Positions 396-59,860 of a stretch of 64,000 bases of DNA are shown piece after piece (position 1 is the first letter of the stretch; each line of letters starts with the position of its first letter). Both the position numbers and the translations under genes were made by a program. The notes beneath the pieces were generated by a model that saw nothing but the letters and a program-made list of their open reading frames with translations, did no database searches and had not been told where the DNA came from. The DNA comes from Pseudemcibacter aquimaris. GTDB lineage: Bacteria; Pseudomonadota; Alphaproteobacteria; Sphingomonadales; Emcibacteraceae. The DNA lies in contig NZ_CP079800.1 of the NCBI RefSeq assembly GCF_028869115.1, positions 2,294,001-2,358,000 of the forward strand. Reading direction: 5' to 3'.

Positions 396-2093
396 CTATA
401 ATTTTCCAGCCTTAAGCTGCGTTGCGGCATAATCAACAGCACGTGCGGTCAACGCCATATATGTCAATGACGGGTTTTGACAGGCCGATGATGTCATACT
501 GGAGCCATCGGTGACAAAAACATTATCCACTTCATGGGTTTGGTTATGTTTATTAAGCACGCTTGTTTTTGGATCATGTCCCATACGCGCCGTTCCCATT
601 TCATGAATAGCAATACCCGGCGTCATGCTGCCCTGATAACCGCGGACGTTCTTAAGCCCCGCCGCTTCCAGAATTTCAATGGATGTTTTCAACATATCTT
701 CACGCATGGCTTCTTCGTTAGGGCCGTATGTACATTCAATTTCAAGCTGCGGCAGCCCCCATTGGTCAACTTTCGTTTTATGGAGTTCCACTTTATTGTC
801 ATAACGCGGCAGCATTTCACCAAATGCACCGATGGACATTCTCCATCCGCCTGGTGTTTTAAAGCTTTCCTTAAAATCAGCACCGAACCCTTTTTTATCA
901 AGGTCATCACGCCAGCCATAACGACGCGCGCCACCTTGCCAACCAAAGCCACGAACATATTTTTCTTCCTGACCATGCAGGTTTTTGAAACGCGGGATAT
1001 AAATTCCTGTGCCGCGACGGCCAATGTAATATTTGTCTTCGAAGCCGTCCAAATCACCGGACGCGCCCGTCGCATAAAGATGATCCATCAAATAATGACC
1101 AAGCGCGCCACTTCCATTGGCGAAACCATTTTGGAAATCTTCGCTGGTCGACTGAAGCATAATTTTCGTCGTGCCCAATGTGGACGCGCATAAGAAAACA
1201 ACTTTAGCCGTATGGTCGGTAACTTCTTTTGTTTTTGAATTAATAACGCGTACGCCTGTAGCTTTCTTTGTTGCCGGATCATAAAGAACACGTTCAACAA
1301 TTCTATCCGTTAATGTGGTTAGATTACCCGTCAAATTCGCCGCTGGTAATGTTGCAGACTGACTAGAGAAATATGCACCAAGCGAACAGCCACGGTAACA
1401 TTGGTTACGTGACTGACACGTGCTACGCCCCAATGATTGTTGCAGTTCTGTTGGTTTCGTTAAATGCGCACAACGGCCAATGATTAATTTCACATCTTCC
1501 ATTTTTGCTTCAACGCGCTTTTTAACCTCTTTTTCACCGCAATTAAGTTCCATTGGCGGCTGGAAAACACCATCCGGCAATTGCGACAGCCCTTCCATAG
1601 AGCCACTAATACCTGCGAATTCTTCTACATGGTCATAATATGGCTTTAAATCCTTATAACGGATCGGCCAATCAACACCATGGCCATCTTTTTTATTGGC
1701 TTCAAAATCAAGGTCGCTCAAACGGTAACTTTGACGGGCCCATTGCAATGATTTACCACCAAGGTGGTCGCCACGGATCCACGTAAACGGTTTATCTTCC
1801 GGATGGGAATATGGATGTTCGTGATCTTTCACAAAAAAATGTTTTGTGCCGTCGCGTAACGCATAACATTGCTTTTGAATTGGATGATGTTTATCGGCAT
1901 ATTTCCGGTCAACACGGTCACGATATTTTAATTCCCACGGGTCTTTATTTTCGCCAAGGTAATCTTCACCATGTTCAACATGCCTACCGCGTTCCAAAAG
2001 CAGGGTTTTAAACCCTCTTTCCGTAAATTCCTTCACGGCCCAGCCACCGGAAATACCGGAGCCAACAACGATTACATCAAATTCTTCAGTCAT
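396..2093 (-). CDS. GMC-family FAD-dependent sugar dehydrogenase, catalytic subunit (paralogue 2)
   Basis: This 565-residue protein is probably a periplasmic glucoside/sugar dehydrogenase that oxidises a sugar hydroxyl with FAD. The N-terminus has the dinucleotide-binding motif VIVVGSGISGG (about residues 7-17). The C-terminus keeps the GMC active-site His (HEMGTARMG) and Asn (SSACQNPSLTY). Cys226, Cys232 and Cys236 form a CX5CX3C set like the 3Fe-4S ligands of bacterial FAD-glucose dehydrogenases. I chose ATG 2093 because its A is also the last base of the upstream TAA (TAATG), although the frame is open 87 bases further upstream. It has no signal peptide, so export would depend on the Tat-signal small subunit at 3800-4342. 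It is a close paralogue of the next gene. Confidence 0.9.
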   Translation of the reverse strand: MTEEFDVIVVGSGISGGWAVKEFTERGFKTLLLERGRHVEHGEDYLGENKDPWELKYRDRVDRKYADKHHPIQKQCYALRDGTKHFFVKDHEHPYSHPEDKPFTWIRGDHLGGKSLQWARQSYRLSDLDFEANKKDGHGVDWPIRYKDLKPYYDHVEEFAGISGSMEGLSQLPDGVFQPPMELNCGEKEVKKRVEAKMEDVKLIIGRCAHLTKPTELQQSLGRSTCQSRNQCYRGCSLGAYFSSQSATLPAANLTGNLTTLTDRIVERVLYDPATKKATGVRVINSKTKEVTDHTAKVVFLCASTLGTTKIMLQSTSEDFQNGFANGSGALGHYLMDHLYATGASGDLDGFEDKYYIGRRGTGIYIPRFKNLHGQEEKYVRGFGWQGGARRYGWRDDLDKKGFGADFKESFKTPGGWRMSIGAFGEMLPRYDNKVELHKTKVDQWGLPQLEIECTYGPNEEAMREDMLKTSIEILEAAGLKNVRGYQGSMTPGIAIHEMGTARMGHDPKTSVLNKHNQTHEVDNVFVTDGSSMTSSACQNPSLTYMALTARAVDYAATQLKAGKL

Positions 2094-3790
2094 TAGAGCT
2101 TCCCTATTTTCATTTGTTTTGCCGCGTAATCCGCTGCACGTGCCGTAAATGCCATGTATGTTAATGACGGATTTTGGCAAGCTGATGACGCCATCGCTGC
2201 ACCGTCCGTGATAAACACATTCTCCACGTCATGGCATTGGTTGTAACCGTTTACGACCGCTTCACGCGGATCATTGCCCATACGCGCCGTACCCATTTCA
2301 TGGATACTTAAGCCAAGGCTGTCTTCGGTATTATAAGTTGTGATATTTTTAAGGCCTGCTGCCTGCATGATTTTCACTGCTTCTTCGCGCATGGCTTTTC
2401 TGATTTTCTTATCATTTTCACCAAACTTCGCATCAATATGAAGCTGCGGCATTCCCCATTTATCCACTTTGGTTTTATGCAAGGTCACACGGTTATCCGC
2501 CATTGGCAGCATTTCACCATATCCTTCAAGGCCGATTTCCCACACGCCAGGCGTTTTAAAGCTTTCTTTAAAGTCCGCACCGAACCCTTTATCAGACAAT
2601 CTGCTGCTCCAGCCAAGTCGACTACTGCCACCCTGATAAGCATAACCGCGTAAGAAATCCTCTTCATCGCGTTCAAGGTTGGTAAAGCGTGGCAAATAAA
2701 TACTGTTTGGTTTTCTGCCAATATAATAATGATCCTGAAAACCATGAAGTTCACCAGTCGCACCCGTAAATGCAAGATGATCCATCAAATAACGACCAAC
2801 CGCATCACTACTGTTGGCGAAACCATTTTGGAAATGTTCACTTGTTGAATTCAGCAGCACTTGCGCCGTGCCAAGTGTCGACGCACAAAGGAAAATAACC
2901 TTTGCGGAATATGTTCTGCCTTCCATGGTGTTGGCATCAACAACGCGAACACCCGATGCACGTTTGGTTTCATCATCATAAATAATACTGTGAACAATAC
3001 TATCAGTGGCAATTGTCATATTGCCTGTTCTATCCGCCGCTGGCAGGGTTGCCGACTGGCTTGAGAAATAAGCACCAAGCGAACAACCGCGCTGACATTG
3101 GTTGCGTGATTGACATGTCCCGCGCCCCAGTTCCATATGAACTTCCGTCGGTTCCGTAAGATGCGCACAACGCCCCGGTATCAAACGTCTGTCATCAAAC
3201 GCTTTTTCAATACGTTTTGCGAATTCTTCTTCCGCGCAGTTAAAACCAATCGGCGGCAAGAACTTGCCATCCGGCAATTGGTCCATGCCTTCCATGGTGC
3301 CACTGATGCCAACGAATTCTTCAACATAATCATACCACGGTGCCATGTCTTTATAACGAACCGGCCAGTCCGTGCCGTAACCATCACGGGCGTTGGATGA
3401 AAAATCCATGTCGCTCCAACGATAGCTTTGACGGTGCCATAATAACGAACGCCCCCCAAGATGATGTCCCCTGATCCATTCGAAATTGCGCCCTTCCGGC
3501 ACGGAATATGGATAATCCACATCGTCATTAAAGAAATGCTTCGTGCTATCCTTAAAAGCATAACAACGTTTCTGTCTTGGATATCTTTGATCCGCAAGTT
3601 TGCGGTCAACCCGGTCACGAAACTTCATTTCCCACGGGTCTTTATTTTCACCAATGTAATCTTCGCCGTGCTCCACATGACGGCCACGTTCAATCACAAG
3701 GGTTTTAAAACCTTTTTCACAAAATTCTTTGGCTGCCCACCCGCCGGAAATACCGGAACCAACGACGATTACATCAAAATCTTCGGCCAT
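2093..3790 (-). CDS. GMC-family FAD-dependent sugar dehydrogenase, catalytic subunit (paralogue 1)
   Basis: This 565-residue GMC oxidoreductase has the same length as its downstream paralogue and aligns with it without obvious gaps. It shows VIVVGSGISGGWAAKEF at the N-terminus, a CX5CX3C cluster (TCQSRNQCQRGC, Cys226/232/236) and the catalytic HEMGTARMG and ACQNPSLTY motifs. In known glucoside 3-dehydrogenases and FAD-glucose dehydrogenases this subunit pairs with a small Tat-signal subunit, which lies just upstream here (3800-4342). The substrate is inferred from the nearby 3-keto-disaccharide hydrolase. Both paralogues keep the active-site residues, so neither looks like a degenerate copy. 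Confidence 0.9.
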   Translation of the reverse strand: MAEDFDVIVVGSGISGGWAAKEFCEKGFKTLVIERGRHVEHGEDYIGENKDPWEMKFRDRVDRKLADQRYPRQKRCYAFKDSTKHFFNDDVDYPYSVPEGRNFEWIRGHHLGGRSLLWHRQSYRWSDMDFSSNARDGYGTDWPVRYKDMAPWYDYVEEFVGISGTMEGMDQLPDGKFLPPIGFNCAEEEFAKRIEKAFDDRRLIPGRCAHLTEPTEVHMELGRGTCQSRNQCQRGCSLGAYFSSQSATLPAADRTGNMTIATDSIVHSIIYDDETKRASGVRVVDANTMEGRTYSAKVIFLCASTLGTAQVLLNSTSEHFQNGFANSSDAVGRYLMDHLAFTGATGELHGFQDHYYIGRKPNSIYLPRFTNLERDEEDFLRGYAYQGGSSRLGWSSRLSDKGFGADFKESFKTPGVWEIGLEGYGEMLPMADNRVTLHKTKVDKWGMPQLHIDAKFGENDKKIRKAMREEAVKIMQAAGLKNITTYNTEDSLGLSIHEMGTARMGNDPREAVVNGYNQCHDVENVFITDGAAMASSACQNPSLTYMAFTARAADYAAKQMKIGKL

Positions 3791-46475: not shown

Positions 46476-49400
46476 ATGACCATATCTCGCATTCATAAAA
46501 TGATTGTTTCCGCATTAGTTGGAACAGCTTTTATTATTACCTCATTTTTTACTGGCGCAATGGCCACCGAAACGGTTAATCCGTCATTATATGCCGGAAA
46601 AGAATACCGTCTAATCGGCCCATGGCGTGGTGGACGCGCCGCAGCCATTAGCGGTGTTATCGGTGATCCCCTGACTTATTATATGGGCGCTGCTGGTGGT
46701 GGTGTATGGAAAACCACCAATGCCGGCACATCATGGTTCAACGTTTCTGATGGTTATTTTACATCGGGGACAATCGGTGCCATTGCCGTATCACAGTCTG
46801 ACCCTAATGTGGTTTATGTTGGCACCGGCGAAGGGCCAATTCGCGGCGTAACCACTGCAAGTGGCGATGGTATGTATAAATCCACAGATGCCGGTAAAAC
46901 ATGGAAACATATCGGTTTACCGAATGCCGGACAAATCCCAAAGGTTCGCGTCCATCCGACCAACCCTGATATCGTTTATGTCGCCGCACAAGGCAACATC
47001 TGGGGCCCGAACGAAGAACGCGGCATTTACCGTTCCGAGGACGGCGGTAAAACGTGGGAACATGTATTAAAAATTGACCCACAGGTCGGTGGTGGCGACC
47101 TTGTGATGGATCCAACAAACCCAAGAATTTTGTATGCGGCCATGTGGGAAAATGGACGCACACCGTGGTATATCCTTTCCGGCGGTGTAAAAGGCGGCAT
47201 CTGGAAAACATCAGATGGTGGGGACACATGGGAAAAACTGGCTGGTGGCTTACCGGAAAAAATCGGTAAAGTCGGCATTGATGTGGCCGCATCAAATCCG
47301 GATCGCGTTTACGCTGTTGTCGAAGGCGACATGTACACGGATGACGGTGGTGTATATCGCAGTGAAGATGGTGGCAAAAACTGGACCAACATTAATTCAA
47401 ACCGTCTGACCCATACACGTGCATGGTATTACAATCACCTTAAGGCCGATCCTAATGATGACAACACCATTTATGTGATGAATGTGCCATTCTTAAAATC
47501 CATTGACGGTGGTAATTCATATGAAATCGTTGAAGTTGGACATGGTGATACGCACGACCTATGGATTAACCCGGAAAATAGCTTAAACATGGCGCTTGCC
47601 GATGATGGTGGCGCAGAAATCACATTCGACGGCGGCAAATCATGGTCATCAATTATGAACCAGCCAACCGCGCAATTTTACCGCGTGAATACGGATAATA
47701 TGATGCCATATCGCATTTACGGTGGTCAGCAGGACAATTCAACTGTGGCCATCACATCTGAATCTTTCACAGGTGGTATCGGTGTTGATGATTATTATTC
47801 CGTTGGTGGCGGTGAAAGTGCCCATGTTGCCTTTGATGAAAACAATCCAAAATATGTTTATGCAACAACCATTAACGGGACACTCACTGAAATTGATACG
47901 GAAAACAGACGAACACGCCCGATTAAACCGTATCCACAATATGTTTTCGGTGAAAATGCTGAAGATTTGAAATACCGTGCAAATTGGAACGCACCGGTTT
48001 CAGCATCCCCCCATGATCCGAGCATCATATATTACGGCGCGCAACTAATATTACGCAGTTCCGACCGCGGCGTTACATGGGAAGAGATCAGCCCGGACCT
48101 AACCCGCAATGAAAAAGAAAAACAACGCTTAAACGGTGGCCCATTAACAGTTGAAAATGTCGGCGCGGAATTTTACGGCAATGTTTATACCATTGTGGAA
48201 AGTCCGCATGAACGCGGTGTCATTTGGTCAGGCAGTGATGACGGGCTTGTATATATAACCCGCGATAACGCAGCAAATTGGGAAAATGTAACCCCACGCA
48301 ATGCACCAGAAGGCATGATCAACGCGATTGAGGTCAGCCCACATGATCCGGCGACGGCGTATGTGGTTGTTTCAGCATACAAAATGAATGATCCTGAGCC
48401 ATACATTTATAAAACATCAAATTATGGCGATAGCTGGGAACGTCTTGATGGCGACCTTCCGGATGGGAATTTTGTTCGTGTTGTCCGTGAAGACAAAAAC
48501 AAGCAAGGATTATTATACGCTGGCACAGAAGGCGGAATGTTTATTTCATTTGATGATGGTGAAAATTGGCAATCTCTTAAGATGAATTTACCGATTGTAC
48601 CGATCACTGATTTGATGATCCGTCAAGGTGACCTTGTGGTCGCAACACAGGGACGCGGGTTTTATGTCATGGATGACATTTCAATCTTCAGCCAGATTTC
48701 AAATGATCAGGCCGAAAAAGAAATCCATGTGATTTCACCAAGCCCAACTATGATGATCACGGGTCGCCGTGGTGGTGGCGCCAACGAGGGCAAAAACCCA
48801 CCAAATGGTGTGATCCTTAGTTATCATATTAAGGATGACCATGAAGGCCCGCTTTCCATCGACATCATGGATAAAATGGGCAATCTGGTTCGCAGTTATT
48901 CAAGCGAGGAAAGCGATCGTGATCGCTGCGTGATTGGCAATATGTCACCACGTCAAAAAAGATCACTTTCCTATCCGTCCAAGAAAAAAGGAATGAACCT
49001 TTGGAATTGGGACATGCGTCGTCATGGACTTATTTGTATTGATAACGTGTTTATGTTCTCGGGCTGGAATGGCGCCAAGGTTATGCCTGGTGAATATCAG
49101 GCCCGCATTTCCATAGGTGATGCGAGCGAGACCGTTCCATTTGAACTTCTTCCTGACCCAAGGGACAATGCAACAACCACTGAATATGAATTTCTGGAAA
49201 CAAAGCTTGTTGAAGGAACCAACCTATTCAATGAAATCATTGTTGCCCTTGATAACACCCGTAAAGCACGCGCACAGGTTAAAGCACTGATGAAAGATCA
49301 TGCAGATTTAATGTCACGCGGCAATGCGGCTATTGAGCAAATTGATACTTGGGAAAAATTAATCGATCAGGTTTATTTCCAGGTTCTTGAAGACGAGGAC

Positions 49401-49619
49401 GCATGGCCAAGTATGCTTGATGTACAAGTAAAACATGTTGTTGATGTGATGGATGGTGCGGGCGCCCCTGTTGCACGTGGTGCGCTTGATCGTCTATCTG
49501 ACCTTCAAGGCCAGTGGATGGCACGTAAAGCAGAACTTGATGCGATCAAGCGTGATCATCTTGATCCAATTAACGCATGGGCGGAACAAAATGGTGTCCG
49601 CCATGTTGTTTCCCCATAA
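46476..49619 (+). CDS. Large exported BNR/VPS10-like beta-propeller protein
   Basis: This 1047-residue protein has a signal peptide (IVSALVGTAFIITSFFTGAMA) and many Asp-box/BNR repeats of the form SxDGGxTW, for example STDAGKTWKHI, SEDGGKTWEHV, TSDGGDTWEKL, SFDDGENWQSL. The first 700 residues are thus one or two beta-propellers, as in sortilin/VPS10 and glycosyl hydrolase-like proteins. The C-terminal part has an immunoglobulin-like segment and a helical end. Such proteins are exported, but their substrates are poorly known. The gene stands alone. Confidence 0.8.
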   Translation: MTISRIHKMIVSALVGTAFIITSFFTGAMATETVNPSLYAGKEYRLIGPWRGGRAAAISGVIGDPLTYYMGAAGGGVWKTTNAGTSWFNVSDGYFTSGTIGAIAVSQSDPNVVYVGTGEGPIRGVTTASGDGMYKSTDAGKTWKHIGLPNAGQIPKVRVHPTNPDIVYVAAQGNIWGPNEERGIYRSEDGGKTWEHVLKIDPQVGGGDLVMDPTNPRILYAAMWENGRTPWYILSGGVKGGIWKTSDGGDTWEKLAGGLPEKIGKVGIDVAASNPDRVYAVVEGDMYTDDGGVYRSEDGGKNWTNINSNRLTHTRAWYYNHLKADPNDDNTIYVMNVPFLKSIDGGNSYEIVEVGHGDTHDLWINPENSLNMALADDGGAEITFDGGKSWSSIMNQPTAQFYRVNTDNMMPYRIYGGQQDNSTVAITSESFTGGIGVDDYYSVGGGESAHVAFDENNPKYVYATTINGTLTEIDTENRRTRPIKPYPQYVFGENAEDLKYRANWNAPVSASPHDPSIIYYGAQLILRSSDRGVTWEEISPDLTRNEKEKQRLNGGPLTVENVGAEFYGNVYTIVESPHERGVIWSGSDDGLVYITRDNAANWENVTPRNAPEGMINAIEVSPHDPATAYVVVSAYKMNDPEPYIYKTSNYGDSWERLDGDLPDGNFVRVVREDKNKQGLLYAGTEGGMFISFDDGENWQSLKMNLPIVPITDLMIRQGDLVVATQGRGFYVMDDISIFSQISNDQAEKEIHVISPSPTMMITGRRGGGANEGKNPPNGVILSYHIKDDHEGPLSIDIMDKMGNLVRSYSSEESDRDRCVIGNMSPRQKRSLSYPSKKKGMNLWNWDMRRHGLICIDNVFMFSGWNGAKVMPGEYQARISIGDASETVPFELLPDPRDNATTTEYEFLETKLVEGTNLFNEIIVALDNTRKARAQVKALMKDHADLMSRGNAAIEQIDTWEKLIDQVYFQVLEDEDAWPSMLDVQVKHVVDVMDGAGAPVARGALDRLSDLQGQWMARKAELDAIKRDHLDPINAWAEQNGVRHVVSP

Positions 49620-55874: not shown

Positions 55875-57812
55875 TCATTCTCCAATATGAGTTTGCAAAA
55901 AGGTGATCATTTTTTCAAAAAATATTTTCTTATGATGTTTTTGCAATAAAAAATGTGTACCACTTTCAAGTTCGAGAAATTCATAATCTTTCTTTGCTTT
56001 CTTTAAGGCGCGGTCCATCATATGGCTATGCTTGATCTCTACTCGAATGTCACTATTTCCATGCACCAGAAAAATTGGAACCTTAATTTTTTTTGCCTGC
56101 TTATTAGGTGATTTTTCATTAATGTTGCCTTTAGAAGGGTTTCCGACAACCCTGTTTTTAATCATCCCTTTTTCCGGTAATATTTTAAAAGTGTCAAAAT
56201 AAGATTTAAGATCAGTAACTGGTGCAAATGAAATGGCGCACTTATAAAGATCTGGATCTTTAACAACCCCCATTAATGCTGCATACCCACCATAACTGCC
56301 ACCAACAATACATATTTTTTCAGGATCAACATTTTCGTTTCTTACCAACCACTTTACGCCGTCAGTAAGGTCATCTTGCATTTTTCCTCCCCACTCACCT
56401 TGGCTCATATTGACAAAAATATTGCCATAGCCTGTTGATCCCCTAAAATTTGGCTGCAAAACAACATATCCTCGGTTTGCGAGTAATTGCACCCATTCAT
56501 TATAATCTTGAGTATCCCTGACCCAAGGTCCTCCATGAGGTAAAATTACAGCAGGTAAAAGCTCATCAGTTTTTGTCTTTGGCCTTGTCAAGTATGAATG
56601 TATTTCAAGACCATCCCGGGAAAAATAGGTTATCGGATTGACGTCAGCCAATTCATAATTCTCAACTGCTATTGAATTTGAAGCTACTAATTTTAACCCT
56701 TCGGTTTTTCTTTCATAAATATAAAAATCAATCGGTGACACTTCATTACTAGCTGAAACAACAACATAATCCTGATTTTCACCATAACTTGAAAGAAATA
56801 TATTTTTTCCGTTAATCATTTCAGATAATTTATTATGAAGATTCTCAAGATTTTCATCAAAAAATTCATATTGCATTGTATTGTCTACATATAATGCAGC
56901 GACAACTTTTTCTTGCTGATAAGAATATATAATATCCTGAGCATCGACCTTAGGATGCTCAAATACTTTGGAGAGAATTCTTTTCCTCTTATAATCATAG
57001 TGATAAATTTTCTTTCTGCCGTGACTGACAGAAGAACTAACAAACATTGTTTCATTTGTTACACCATTCGTTAATGGCGCAAAATTACCACTTTCAAACA
57101 ATGGTTGGTCACTATAATCTCTAAATTTTTCAGCATCATGATCGTATATTAAAAGTACTTGCTTTTCATCATCATTACCATAACCCAAAAGCGGCGTTCC
57201 ATCTTTATCTACGACCCAAGATAATACTGGCTCACGTTCTTTTAAAACCAATTCGCTATCACCAGTAATTATATTAACCTTATGCAAACTCGGATAAAGT
57301 TTCTTTTTTACCGGATGCGAAATTAAGATGTGGTCATCATCTTCCGGAAGTGCATGAAGTAAAGTAGCAGGCTGGTTAGCAACCACCCTATTAACTTCAT
57401 ATTTAAGAAAAACATTTATATTATTGATGTTAGTGTCAATTAACGCCCATTCTCTAAAATATTTTTTAACCGTTCCTCTAGAGTTTTTTTCAAGCACGGT
57501 ATAAGCAACAATTAACTGATCATTATTTATCCATGCAATGTTGGATAATAATGAAATAGGCAAACTATATTCCAAGTTTATATCATTTGTCTTAAAAGGG
57601 TTTCCTTTTATCCATACTTTAGGCTGGCCAGACGATAGCGATAAAATGAAATATTTCTCCTGATCCGGTGAAATAGACACAGCATTATATTTTGAAGTTT
57701 CAATTAAATTATCAATAGGGATTTCTTGTGAAAAAGTACTACTTATCACTACCCAGGGACTAATTATTAATAACACCAAAATCAGAGCAAGTTTCTTCAT
57801 TCTCAAATTCAT
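55875..57812 (-). CDS. Exported S9-family prolyl oligopeptidase (active-type)
   Basis: This 645-residue protein has a signal peptide (LALILVLLIISPWVVISSTF), an N-terminal beta-propeller region, and a C-terminal peptidase domain with Ser506 in VGGSYGGYAALMG, Asp588 in HGNSDIRV and His620 in SGTHFLLQ. PHGGPWVRDTQDYNEWVQLL and FRGSTGYGNIF are typical of acylaminoacyl peptidase/DPP members. The start overlaps the upstream paralogue's stop (ATGA), so they are translated together. Confidence 0.9.
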   Translation of the reverse strand: MNLRMKKLALILVLLIISPWVVISSTFSQEIPIDNLIETSKYNAVSISPDQEKYFILSLSSGQPKVWIKGNPFKTNDINLEYSLPISLLSNIAWINNDQLIVAYTVLEKNSRGTVKKYFREWALIDTNINNINVFLKYEVNRVVANQPATLLHALPEDDDHILISHPVKKKLYPSLHKVNIITGDSELVLKEREPVLSWVVDKDGTPLLGYGNDDEKQVLLIYDHDAEKFRDYSDQPLFESGNFAPLTNGVTNETMFVSSSVSHGRKKIYHYDYKRKRILSKVFEHPKVDAQDIIYSYQQEKVVAALYVDNTMQYEFFDENLENLHNKLSEMINGKNIFLSSYGENQDYVVVSASNEVSPIDFYIYERKTEGLKLVASNSIAVENYELADVNPITYFSRDGLEIHSYLTRPKTKTDELLPAVILPHGGPWVRDTQDYNEWVQLLANRGYVVLQPNFRGSTGYGNIFVNMSQGEWGGKMQDDLTDGVKWLVRNENVDPEKICIVGGSYGGYAALMGVVKDPDLYKCAISFAPVTDLKSYFDTFKILPEKGMIKNRVVGNPSKGNINEKSPNKQAKKIKVPIFLVHGNSDIRVEIKHSHMMDRALKKAKKDYEFLELESGTHFLLQKHHKKIFFEKMITFLQTHIGE

Positions 57813-59860
57813 TCAATACCTGTTGCTGACGCAATATTATCTATAGTTGCTACGTCATTATGCTCTTGTAAAAATTTTTCTAACTCTAACAAAAAGGATT
57901 TACGTTGCTCATAAGTCGTGAAATCATTCCCTGCCCCTTCAATCACAACATAATTATGCGGAATATTATACTTATTTAATGCTTCAACAAAATTATCTGT
58001 GGAATCTTTCGGCACCGAATTATTAAGTTCTCCATGAAATAATAGCAAAGGAGTTTTAATATCTCTTACATTATGCTGAGGAGAAATTTTTCTAATTGCT
58101 TTATTCTTTTTCTTACCAATCATTCGTTCAGCAATATTTTTTCCTAATGCTGATTTTATATTTTTCACTAATTGATACAAATCAGCGATTGGAGCTTCAG
58201 CAATCACACAGTTGAAAAGTTCAGGATTTTGAATACTACCCATTAGAGCAATATAGCCAGCAAAATTTTTTCCCATTATGCATACTTTGCTTTTATCGAC
58301 CATACCTTCAGAAACCAAGTATTCAATACCATCAATAATGTCGTTTTGAATATTACCGCCCCATTCACCATACCCCATCATCTGGTATTGCAATCCATAC
58401 CCAGACGAACCTCTGTAATTAGGCTGAAATACTGCGTAACCTCTACTGACTAGAAATTGAATTATGTAATTATACTCATTAACATCTCTTCCATCTGGAT
58501 TGGTATGAGGCATAACAATCAAAGGTAACTTATCATTTTCATTACGATCTTTTGGCAAGGATATAAGCGCTGGAATTTCAAGCCCATCTCTTGAAAAATA
58601 AGTAATACTTTCTTGTTTGGTTAAATATTTTGGATCAAGTCTATAATTCAGTTCTCCTAGCAACTGTAACTGTTTATTTTCAATATCCATTCTGTAAAAA
58701 GCGCCGGGAAAAACATCGCTATCTGACTTAATAAGCATAAATTTATTATTATTTGTAATACTGACCAAATGATTGTTTCTATCAGGTAATGCTGAATTAA
58801 TCGCAGTCATTAGTTTTTTATAATCTTCGTCTAAATAGTATCTTTCAAGCTTATCTTCCTGATAGGTCACTGCTAGAATTTTTTTATTTATTTCAGAAAA
58901 CTCCAGACCATTTACATCAACATTCGGATGCTCATAAAGTTTATTCGTCAGAACTTCATTTACTAAGTCAAATTCATAAATTGCATATCTGCCGTTTGAG
59001 GCAGGTGAAATCACAAGAATACTGTTTTCAGTTTCACCAAAATTAACTGGCCGAAATCTGTCATCCTGAAAAATTTCTTGATCGTGTAAATTTACCCAAT
59101 CCGTTTCGCCTGCTTTTCTGGCAATCATAATTAATCGCCCATCTTCTGCCCCTACACCAAACCTGACATTACCATCATGATCCGTAATCCATTGTGTTAT
59201 TTTATCAGCAGCTGCCTGCGCTATACTCGTTTCACCGTTATAAACATTTAGATATTTTACAGTAGGAAATTGTTCTTCATTTTCGGTTGTTGAAATTAGT
59301 ATTTTGGATTCATCGTTCCAAAGCATGTCGATTTCAAAATTGTTAATCGCTTGCAAGTTATTCAAAAACAGTGGATTAAAATCATATTTATATTCGTAAA
59401 TTTTTTCTAATCCCGAGCCATTGACATCAAATCCATAAACAGTCTTTTTCAAAATGAAAGAAAAAGTCAGGTTTCGACCATCAAAACCAAAATCAATATT
59501 ATCTATACTATTTATTGTTAGAAGTACTCTAGTATCATTAACCCAAAATATTTTACCTAATAAACCTTTCGATACAGCTCCAACATAATGCTGCTCAAGG
59601 TCATCATCATCAACAGGATCAACTCTAAAAATATATTTATCGTCATTTGGATAAACATAAAGAATATGTTGACCATCTGGCGAAAGGGATATGTCATTAA
59701 ATTCAGGCTCTTGGGCAAAAAGTAAAACTGGTATGTCGCTGGCTTTGTCATATTTAAAATAATCCATTCCAGGTGCAACTTCTTGTGCATAGCTTGTAAG
59801 CCCAACTGAAGTAAGTAAACCAATTAAAATGAATAAAAAACTTTTATGCTTAAAGTACAA
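57809..59860 (-). CDS. Exported S9-family peptidase homologue lacking the catalytic triad
   Basis: This protein (683 residues if it starts at TTG 59860, after GGGGGAAGG) has a signal peptide (SFLFILIGLLTSVGLTSYAQ), a propeller region and an S9 fold like the downstream gene. The three catalytic positions are all Asn: Asn532 (GKNFAGY), Asn613 (HGELNNSV) and Asn645 (GAGNDF). Spacings between them, 81 and 32, match those of the active paralogue (82 and 32). It should not be a serine peptidase and may be a binding or regulatory partner. A TTG 15 bases upstream is a second start choice. Confidence 0.85.
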   Translation of the reverse strand: MYFKHKSFLFILIGLLTSVGLTSYAQEVAPGMDYFKYDKASDIPVLLFAQEPEFNDISLSPDGQHILYVYPNDDKYIFRVDPVDDDDLEQHYVGAVSKGLLGKIFWVNDTRVLLTINSIDNIDFGFDGRNLTFSFILKKTVYGFDVNGSGLEKIYEYKYDFNPLFLNNLQAINNFEIDMLWNDESKILISTTENEEQFPTVKYLNVYNGETSIAQAAADKITQWITDHDGNVRFGVGAEDGRLIMIARKAGETDWVNLHDQEIFQDDRFRPVNFGETENSILVISPASNGRYAIYEFDLVNEVLTNKLYEHPNVDVNGLEFSEINKKILAVTYQEDKLERYYLDEDYKKLMTAINSALPDRNNHLVSITNNNKFMLIKSDSDVFPGAFYRMDIENKQLQLLGELNYRLDPKYLTKQESITYFSRDGLEIPALISLPKDRNENDKLPLIVMPHTNPDGRDVNEYNYIIQFLVSRGYAVFQPNYRGSSGYGLQYQMMGYGEWGGNIQNDIIDGIEYLVSEGMVDKSKVCIMGKNFAGYIALMGSIQNPELFNCVIAEAPIADLYQLVKNIKSALGKNIAERMIGKKKNKAIRKISPQHNVRDIKTPLLLFHGELNNSVPKDSTDNFVEALNKYNIPHNYVVIEGAGNDFTTYEQRKSFLLELEKFLQEHNDVATIDNIASATGIE

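What the first reader, a model, noticed from the sequence alone, without database searches (positions are those of the whole stretch)
55875..59860. Paired S9 peptidases: one with the full triad replaced by asparagine, translationally coupled to an active paralogue
In the upstream protein Ser, Asp and His are all Asn (532, 613, 645), while surrounding motifs and spacings (81 and 32 residues) match the active copy (506, 588, 620; 82 and 32). Replacement of all three by the same residue with an otherwise intact frame and signal peptide argues for a maintained non-catalytic function, such as peptide binding, inhibition or hetero-oligomer formation. The stop and start overlap (ATGA), so the two are made in fixed ratio.
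Basis: partly seen in the sequence, partly recalled or inferred. Interest (0 to 1): 0.75.

Follow-up and report, generated by a model that had tools for sequence, protein, structure and literature searches.

The report
Dead peptidase paired with active twin
This bacterium carries, back to back with a working secreted peptidase, a close relative whose cutting machinery has been dismantled; some related bacteria keep the same pair and have lost the catalytic serine in different ways, which suggests that the dead copy still has a job, probably as a partner or peptide-binding subunit of the live one.

Summary
In detail: the upstream S9 protein has Asn (AAT) at all three triad positions, the downstream one has Ser/Asp/His, and the genes overlap by ATGA. 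Orthologues of both, 31-44% identical per domain to P0001, exist in another family of the order (one carrier is titled Kordiimonadaceae). They form a recurrent unit. Of eight P0001-type proteins read, seven lack the nucleophile serine (N, G, G, A, T, T, D); the eighth keeps the letters but has an extra residue in the nucleophile elbow. All seven partners readable at the triad are Ser/Asp/His. So inactivation is conserved but the Asn triad is private to this genome. A second pair type, with gene order reversed, lost the serine too (L, L, N, G, G). Pseudo-members show purifying selection about as strong as their partners', keep the fold, and in P0001 the losses fall mainly on active-site columns. 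Three carry a fused, TPR-like C-terminus. Adjacency survives orientation changes. One same-genus relative has both genes broken. Best reading: a maintained pseudopeptidase subunit of a periplasmic S9 pair; a physical complex is inferred, not shown. My literature searches listed no bacterial S9 pair of this kind; DPP6/DPP10 and M16 heterodimers are the nearest analogues.

The parts
57809..59860 (-). S9 pseudopeptidase (P0001), 683 aa; Asn at the Ser, Asp and His positions; signal-like N-terminus, beta-propeller, alpha/beta-hydrolase domain
   Evidence: Pfam PF00326 126 bits; triad columns; AlphaFold2 pLDDT 84.4, pTM 0.86, best PDB match acylaminoacyl peptidase 5l8s
55875..57812 (-). Partner S9 peptidase (P0002), 645 aa, Ser506/Asp588/His620, GGSYGGY and HGGP motifs intact
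   Evidence: Pfam PF00326 146 bits; triad
57809..57812 (-). ATGA stop/start overlap of the two genes
   Evidence: read from the DNA; a 4-base overlap is also possible in L101 and L204
59866..59874 (-). GGGGGAAGG, likely ribosome-binding site before TTG 59860
   Evidence: read from the DNA; not tested

Best explanation
P0001 is a maintained S9 pseudopeptidase. It arose by duplication of a secreted S9 peptidase and is kept next to its active paralogue P0002. Shown by sequence: the catalytic serine is lost in the orthologous clade except one member with an altered elbow; fold and frame are kept; purifying selection persists; the partner keeps the triad; the pair stays adjacent. Inferred: both are exported, and P0001 works as the non-catalytic subunit of a hetero-oligomer with P0002. 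In that complex its beta-propeller, relatively better conserved than the partner's in most comparisons, binds or gates peptides or tunes the partner, much as inactive subunits do in M16 peptidase heterodimers. The three orthologues with a fused TPR-like C-terminus fit a binding or scaffold role.
For: P0001 groups with the other pseudopeptidases (SH-aLRT 96) and P0002 with their partners (99) (quick method, no bootstrap). Nucleophile N/G/G/A/T/T/D in 7 of 8; partners Ser/Asp/His in 7 of 7 readable, the eighth masked at Ser. Profile searches of 296 genomes of the order (3-4 candidates scored per genome) give the partner type in 7 genomes above 860 bits (next 528) and the pseudo type in 6 of those 7 above 670 bits (next 567); the seventh, G005, holds an N-terminal piece. 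All seven partner rows and four of the seven pseudo matches were in the profiles. Adjacent in 7 of 7 loci where both genes were found intact. Five co-directional junctions overlap by 4 bases or abut. pN is lower in the pseudo-member in 7 of the 8 comparisons run. Of 34 columns at least 97% conserved in 125 Ser/Asp/His rows, P0001 lost 8, 7 of them in the HGGP, elbow and triad sites. Against six relatives P0001 is more similar than P0002 in the propeller (31-38% vs 23-28%) and less in the hydrolase domain (35-43% vs 43-48%), 6 of 6 each.
Against: No complex was tested or modelled. Tail-to-tail pairs in G094 and G090 rule out translational coupling there. G097 has a second, fused pseudo copy with no S9 partner in the 13 kb read. 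In G005 both genes are broken at an insertion element. The eighth pN comparison, the window's own pair against G005, gives 0.283 (63 codons) for the pseudo-member and 0.277 for the partner. Similar pseudo and partner distances (Mantel r 0.82, 32 of 5040 permutations as high) can come from the shared species tree. Over all 21 genome pairs the propeller trend holds in 16; all 5 exceptions involve a fused protein. P0001 carries only 24 of 55 residues typical of its orthologues against the partners (5 of 16 in the hydrolase domain), and the partner's usual residue at 9. One P0001-type protein, L101, still has Ser/Asp/His letters.
Confidence: 0.58

Rival explanations
1. P0001 is a stand-alone periplasmic peptide-binding or scaffold protein; it stays beside P0002 only because both serve the same peptide-scavenging route, without forming a complex.
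For: Propeller relatively better conserved than in the partner in 16 of 21 pairs; fused TPR-like C-terminus in three orthologues; the second copy in G097 has no adjacent partner in the stretch read.
Against: Adjacency is kept across families and through orientation changes; both types occur in the same 7 of 296 genomes, one pseudo copy being a fragment.
Confidence: 0.23
2. P0001 is a decaying duplicate caught before frame-breaking mutations.
For: All three triad residues and the HGGP motif are changed; long end branch (1.1); the copy in G005 is broken.
Against: 683 codons open; 116 of 145 columns invariant in seven orthologues are kept in P0001, against 108 of 160 columns (invariant in six partners) for P0002; inactivation is shared by orthologues in another family; fold predicted with confidence.
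Confidence: 0.09
3. P0001 and its orthologues are still enzymes with a moved nucleophile or another chemistry.
For: Seven of the eight keep Asp, five of those also His; L101 keeps Ser/Asp/His letters with a one-residue elbow insertion; replacements such as T or D could in principle react.
Against: In P0001 HGGP is HTNP and no triad residue remains; the replacing residue differs between relatives, unlike a new catalytic residue.
Confidence: 0.07

Closest known systems
DPP6 / DPP10 (S9B pseudopeptidases that modulate Kv4 channels; PMC4350108, passages read)
   Same: S9 fold with propeller and hydrolase domain, catalytic Ser replaced (Asp in DPP6, Gly in DPP10), Asp-His pair kept in DPP10, protein-protein role
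   Different: Animal S9B proteins acting on a channel and, as I recall, not gene-paired with an active paralogue; here signal-bearing bacterial proteins nearest to acylaminoacyl peptidases, beside an active twin, and P0001 lost all three residues
M16B heterodimers TTHA1264/TTHA1265, SPH2681/SPH2682 and mitochondrial MPP (PMC12731061, passages read)
   Same: One chain carries the metal motif, the other is a homologue; neighbouring genes in the bacterial TTHA case; the non-peptidase alpha subunit is essential in MPP
   Different: Unrelated fold and metal chemistry (recalled); complex proven there, not here
CspC:CspA pseudoproteases of Clostridioides difficile (PMC12880746, search listing and start of abstract)
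   Same: Bacterial pseudoproteases acting as a pair
   Different: Subtilisin-like (recalled); germination signalling; both partners are pseudoproteases
Acylaminoacyl peptidase of Sporosarcina psychrophila, PDB 5l8s
   Same: Best sequence and fold match in the PDB
   Different: Described as a cold-adapted enzyme with its own quaternary architecture; no dead paralogue mentioned in the titles seen

Membership tests
Peptidase family S9 (fold) | beta-propeller plus alpha/beta-hydrolase domain, Pfam PF00326 above cut-off | tested here: met
   P0001 126 bits, P0002 146 bits, cut-off 22.6; P0001 model pLDDT 84.4, best match 5l8s
Peptidase family S9 (active enzyme) | Ser-Asp-His triad with GxSxGG elbow and HGGP motif | tested here: not met
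   P0001 N/N/N, GKNFAG, HTNP; P0002 has the triad and motifs
S9 pseudopeptidase, as DPP6/DPP10 | nucleophile lost with fold kept and gene maintained | tested here: met
S9 pseudopeptidase, as DPP6/DPP10 | no peptidase activity when purified | not testable with these tools
   needs assay
Active/inactive peptidase heterodimer, as M16B | neighbouring genes, one active and one dead paralogue, conserved as a pair | tested here: met
   adjacent in 7 of 7 loci with both genes intact; partners keep the triad in 7 of 7 readable
Active/inactive peptidase heterodimer, as M16B | physical complex needed for activity | not testable with these tools
dipeptidyl-peptidase Dpp5 and lasso peptide isopeptidase (NCBIfam) | score above the curated cut-off | tested here: not met
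   70 of 900 and 39 of 400 bits for P0001; 82 and 36 bits for P0002

The most novel reading that the evidence does not exclude
A bacterial family of obligate hetero-oligomeric S9 peptidases in which one subunit has been turned, in at least two pair types and by different substitutions, into a peptide-reading receptor. Its propeller captures or sorts peptides and passes them to the catalytic twin, with TPR fusions linking the complex to further partners.
Probability: 0.25. Interest if true: 0.8.

Novelty: new variant of a known kind. Interest (0 to 1): 0.62.

Why it matters
S9 peptidases are common in bacteria and usually treated as single-gene enzymes; a family profile gives both members here the same peptidase label. 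A conserved dead/live pair suggests heteromeric S9 assemblies in bacteria and offers a natural series of nucleophile replacements (N, G, A, T, D, L) in two pair types for testing how a peptidase becomes a binding subunit. It also warns against counting such genes as degradative capacity.

Tried and rejected
Recent decay of P0001 only: rejected as the main reading because orthologues in another family share the loss. An Asn triad with its own meaning: rejected, none of the 7 orthologues read has it. One single origin of all dead members: not supported; the 71-row tree needs 8 label changes, at least 6 forced by well-supported branches. The first tree (49 rows) placed P0001 beside the G023 pair with weak support (87/47); wider sampling moved it to the pseudo clade, so the first placing was dropped. 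No genome was found with both pair types, but only 3-4 candidates per genome were scored in the order-wide searches and no test was run. dN/dS could not be used because synonymous sites are saturated in most comparisons; only pN is compared, in 8 chosen and partly overlapping comparisons. Rows dropped: near-copies, short or remote rows before the tree (list in that script), fused proteins cut to 700 residues there; L104 and the contig-cut L215 fragment left out. L102 and L103 are the same stretches as L210 and L212 and were not counted twice. The 144 distinct rows were picked as best matches, so 18 without serine is not a frequency; L101 and L072 are counted there as Ser/Asp/His.

Full report
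What is there. Its relative G005, of the same genus, is the MAG titled Kordiimonadaceae bacterium SI072_bin126: contig L117 is identical to L046. The genome has 23 Peptidase_S9 matches, 15 of them above 100 bits. The pair in question is P0001 (57809-59860, -, 683 aa) and P0002 (55875-57812, -, 645 aa).

Orthologues. Of 13 genomes of the genus (the window's own included) only G005 also shows the locus, and it is damaged. One contig carries 64 residues of a P0001 orthologue (56% identical) that run into an element; a 144-base probe of that element has 12 matches in G005, 8 of them nearly full-length, counting itself. The other contig carries a P0002 orthologue (55%) with Ser/Asp/His, cut at its N-terminus at what looks like the other end of such an element. 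That the element is IS3-like is my reading, recalled, not a tool result. The order-wide search (296 genomes) and the named-genome scan brought the informative relatives: P0001-type proteins in G088, G097 (two), G082, G094 and G090, all of another family of the order, and in the named Kordiimonadaceae contig L101; they are 31-44% identical to P0001 in each domain.

State of the triad. P0001-type (nucleophile/Asp/His): window N/N/N; L202 G/D/H; L203 G/D/H; L204 A/D/H; L205 T/D/R; L206 T/D/H; L207 D/D/R; L101 S/D/H. All but P0001 have one extra residue in the nucleophile elbow (alignment). Partners: Ser/Asp/His in 7 of 7 readable, L101's partner being masked at the serine. A second pair type has the active gene first and the odd one second: L211 and L212 L/D/H, L213 N/D/G, L210 and L214 G/D/G, L072 S/D/H but with HQNP for HGGP; one more (L215) is cut by the contig end. 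Its upstream partners are Ser/Asp/His in 7 of 7. Five further members without serine occur in the window's genus (L035 N, L047 T, L048 H, L098 T, L099 N), at least two of them beside an active paralogue (L035, L048), and one in Kordiimonas laminariae (L120 W). Of 144 distinct best-matching rows, 123 are Ser/Asp/His (L101 and L072 among them), 18 lack serine, 1 is masked and 2 are cut short. Of the 73 rows from named loci L105-L179, 71 are Ser/Asp/His and 2 are cut short (L120 is counted with the others there).

Tree. With 71 rows (quick method, no bootstrap), P0001 falls with the seven other pseudo-type rows (SH-aLRT 96) and P0002 with the partners (99). The two sides meet at a node with 96; on the pseudo side two Ser/Asp/His rows, G068 and G050, branch off first (97 and 85), so the loss is derived and one duplication plausibly made pair type 1. 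Pair type 2 forms its own two sister clades (100 and 100, joined at 81). The dead label needs 8 changes, at least 6 forced.

Selection and fold. Synonymous sites are saturated in most comparisons, but nonsynonymous differences are fewer (pN 0.11-0.31 for pseudo-members, 0.15-0.37 for partners). pN is lower in the pseudo-member in 7 of 8 comparisons; in the eighth, the window's own pair against G005, it is 0.283 (63 codons only) against 0.277. P0001 keeps 116 of 145 columns invariant in its seven orthologues; P0002 keeps 108 of 160 columns invariant in six partners. Of 55 columns typical of the pseudo clade against the partners, P0001 has the pseudo residue at 24 (19 of 39 propeller, 5 of 16 hydrolase), P0002 at 7. 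Of 34 columns at least 97% conserved in 125 Ser/Asp/His rows (a few counted twice), P0001 differs at 8, and 7 of those lie in the HGGP motif, elbow or triad, where I count 12 of the 34 columns; by hand calculation the hypergeometric chance is about 0.001, the site being named after the fact (columns). The AlphaFold2 model is confident (pLDDT 84.4, pTM 0.86) and its best PDB match is the acylaminoacyl peptidase 5l8s.

Where the constraint lies. Compared with the same six relatives, P0001 is more conserved than P0002 in the propeller (31.1-38.4% vs 22.8-27.9%) and less in the hydrolase domain (35.2-43.1% vs 42.5-47.9%) in 6 of 6. Over all 21 genome pairs the propeller trend holds in 16, the 5 exceptions all involving a fused protein, and the hydrolase trend in 15. 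This is what one expects if the function moved from catalysis to binding, but the pairs are not independent.

Arrangement. In five co-directional type-1 loci the genes overlap by 4 bases (window, L101, L204) or abut (L202, L203). In G094 and G090 they are adjacent but tail-to-tail, and there the pseudo gene, like the unpartnered second copy of G097, carries an extra C-terminus of about 480 residues. That extension has a weak TPR match in one of three, is predicted as mostly helical hairpins with moderate confidence (pLDDT 68, three sequences) and weakly matches TPR superhelices (best E 6e-4). In one search immediate flanks are shared within the window's genus (Lrp-type regulator, Cys/Met lyase, Rieske oxygenase, EamA) and between the close pair G088 and G097; otherwise only scattered matches appear, such as one gene upstream of the pair in L101 and L204. 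So across families the pair itself is the conserved unit. In 296 genomes the two types are found in the same 7 genomes, one pseudo copy being a fragment, with large score gaps to the next match; the partner profile was built from all seven partner rows, the pseudo profile from four of its seven matches plus L101.

Mechanism. Shown: maintained, fold-intact (by prediction), catalytically dismantled paralogue, paired with one that keeps its triad. Inferred: export of both; complex formation; peptide binding or gating by the propeller of the pseudo-member. Translational coupling is plausible here but cannot be general.

Known work. In DPP6 and DPP10 the serine is Asp or Gly and their roles are protein-protein (PMC4350108, passages). 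M16 heterodimers, including a neighbouring-gene bacterial pair, show how a homologue without the motif can be a needed subunit (PMC12731061, passages). A survey of 91 prokaryotic genomes reports 42 inactive homologues among 966 serine proteases of five families; S9 seems not to be one of them, the term prolyl oligopeptidase occurring only in a reference (PMC2605481, passages). Searches returned no paper; searches listed 20 rows each of 120, 23, 280 and 7,290, and one search listed all 15. In those rows I saw no bacterial S9 pseudopeptidase/peptidase pair; subscription papers are not covered. I rate it a new variant of a known kind.

Noticed in passing
L035:3950-7713 (own genome, about 1598949-1602712): A second pair in the same genome: an active S9 gene followed, about 210 bases after its stop, by a shorter open frame (517 codons) with Asn at the nucleophile and no recognisable Asp/His; it may be truly decayed.
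   Followed up: partly
L044:3230-3373 and L046:3200-3324 (G005): A multi-copy insertion element ends both remnants of the orthologous pair in a same-genus MAG; no other P0001-type match was found in that genome.
   Followed up: partly
L205:2846-6322, L206:6282-9749, L207:8284-11751: Pseudopeptidases fused to a TPR-like helical C-terminus of about 480 residues ending in a small alpha/beta part.
   Followed up: partly
window 46476-49619 and L206:2588-5842: Sortilin/BNR-repeat protein in the window about 6 kb beyond the pair; a relative lies directly upstream of the fused pseudopeptidase in G094 and another near the pair in L211. Possibly chance.
   Followed up: no
L120:1-7941 (Kordiimonas laminariae): A further dead S9 protein (W/D/I, 1765-3759) within a tandem row of four related S9 frames.
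   Followed up: no
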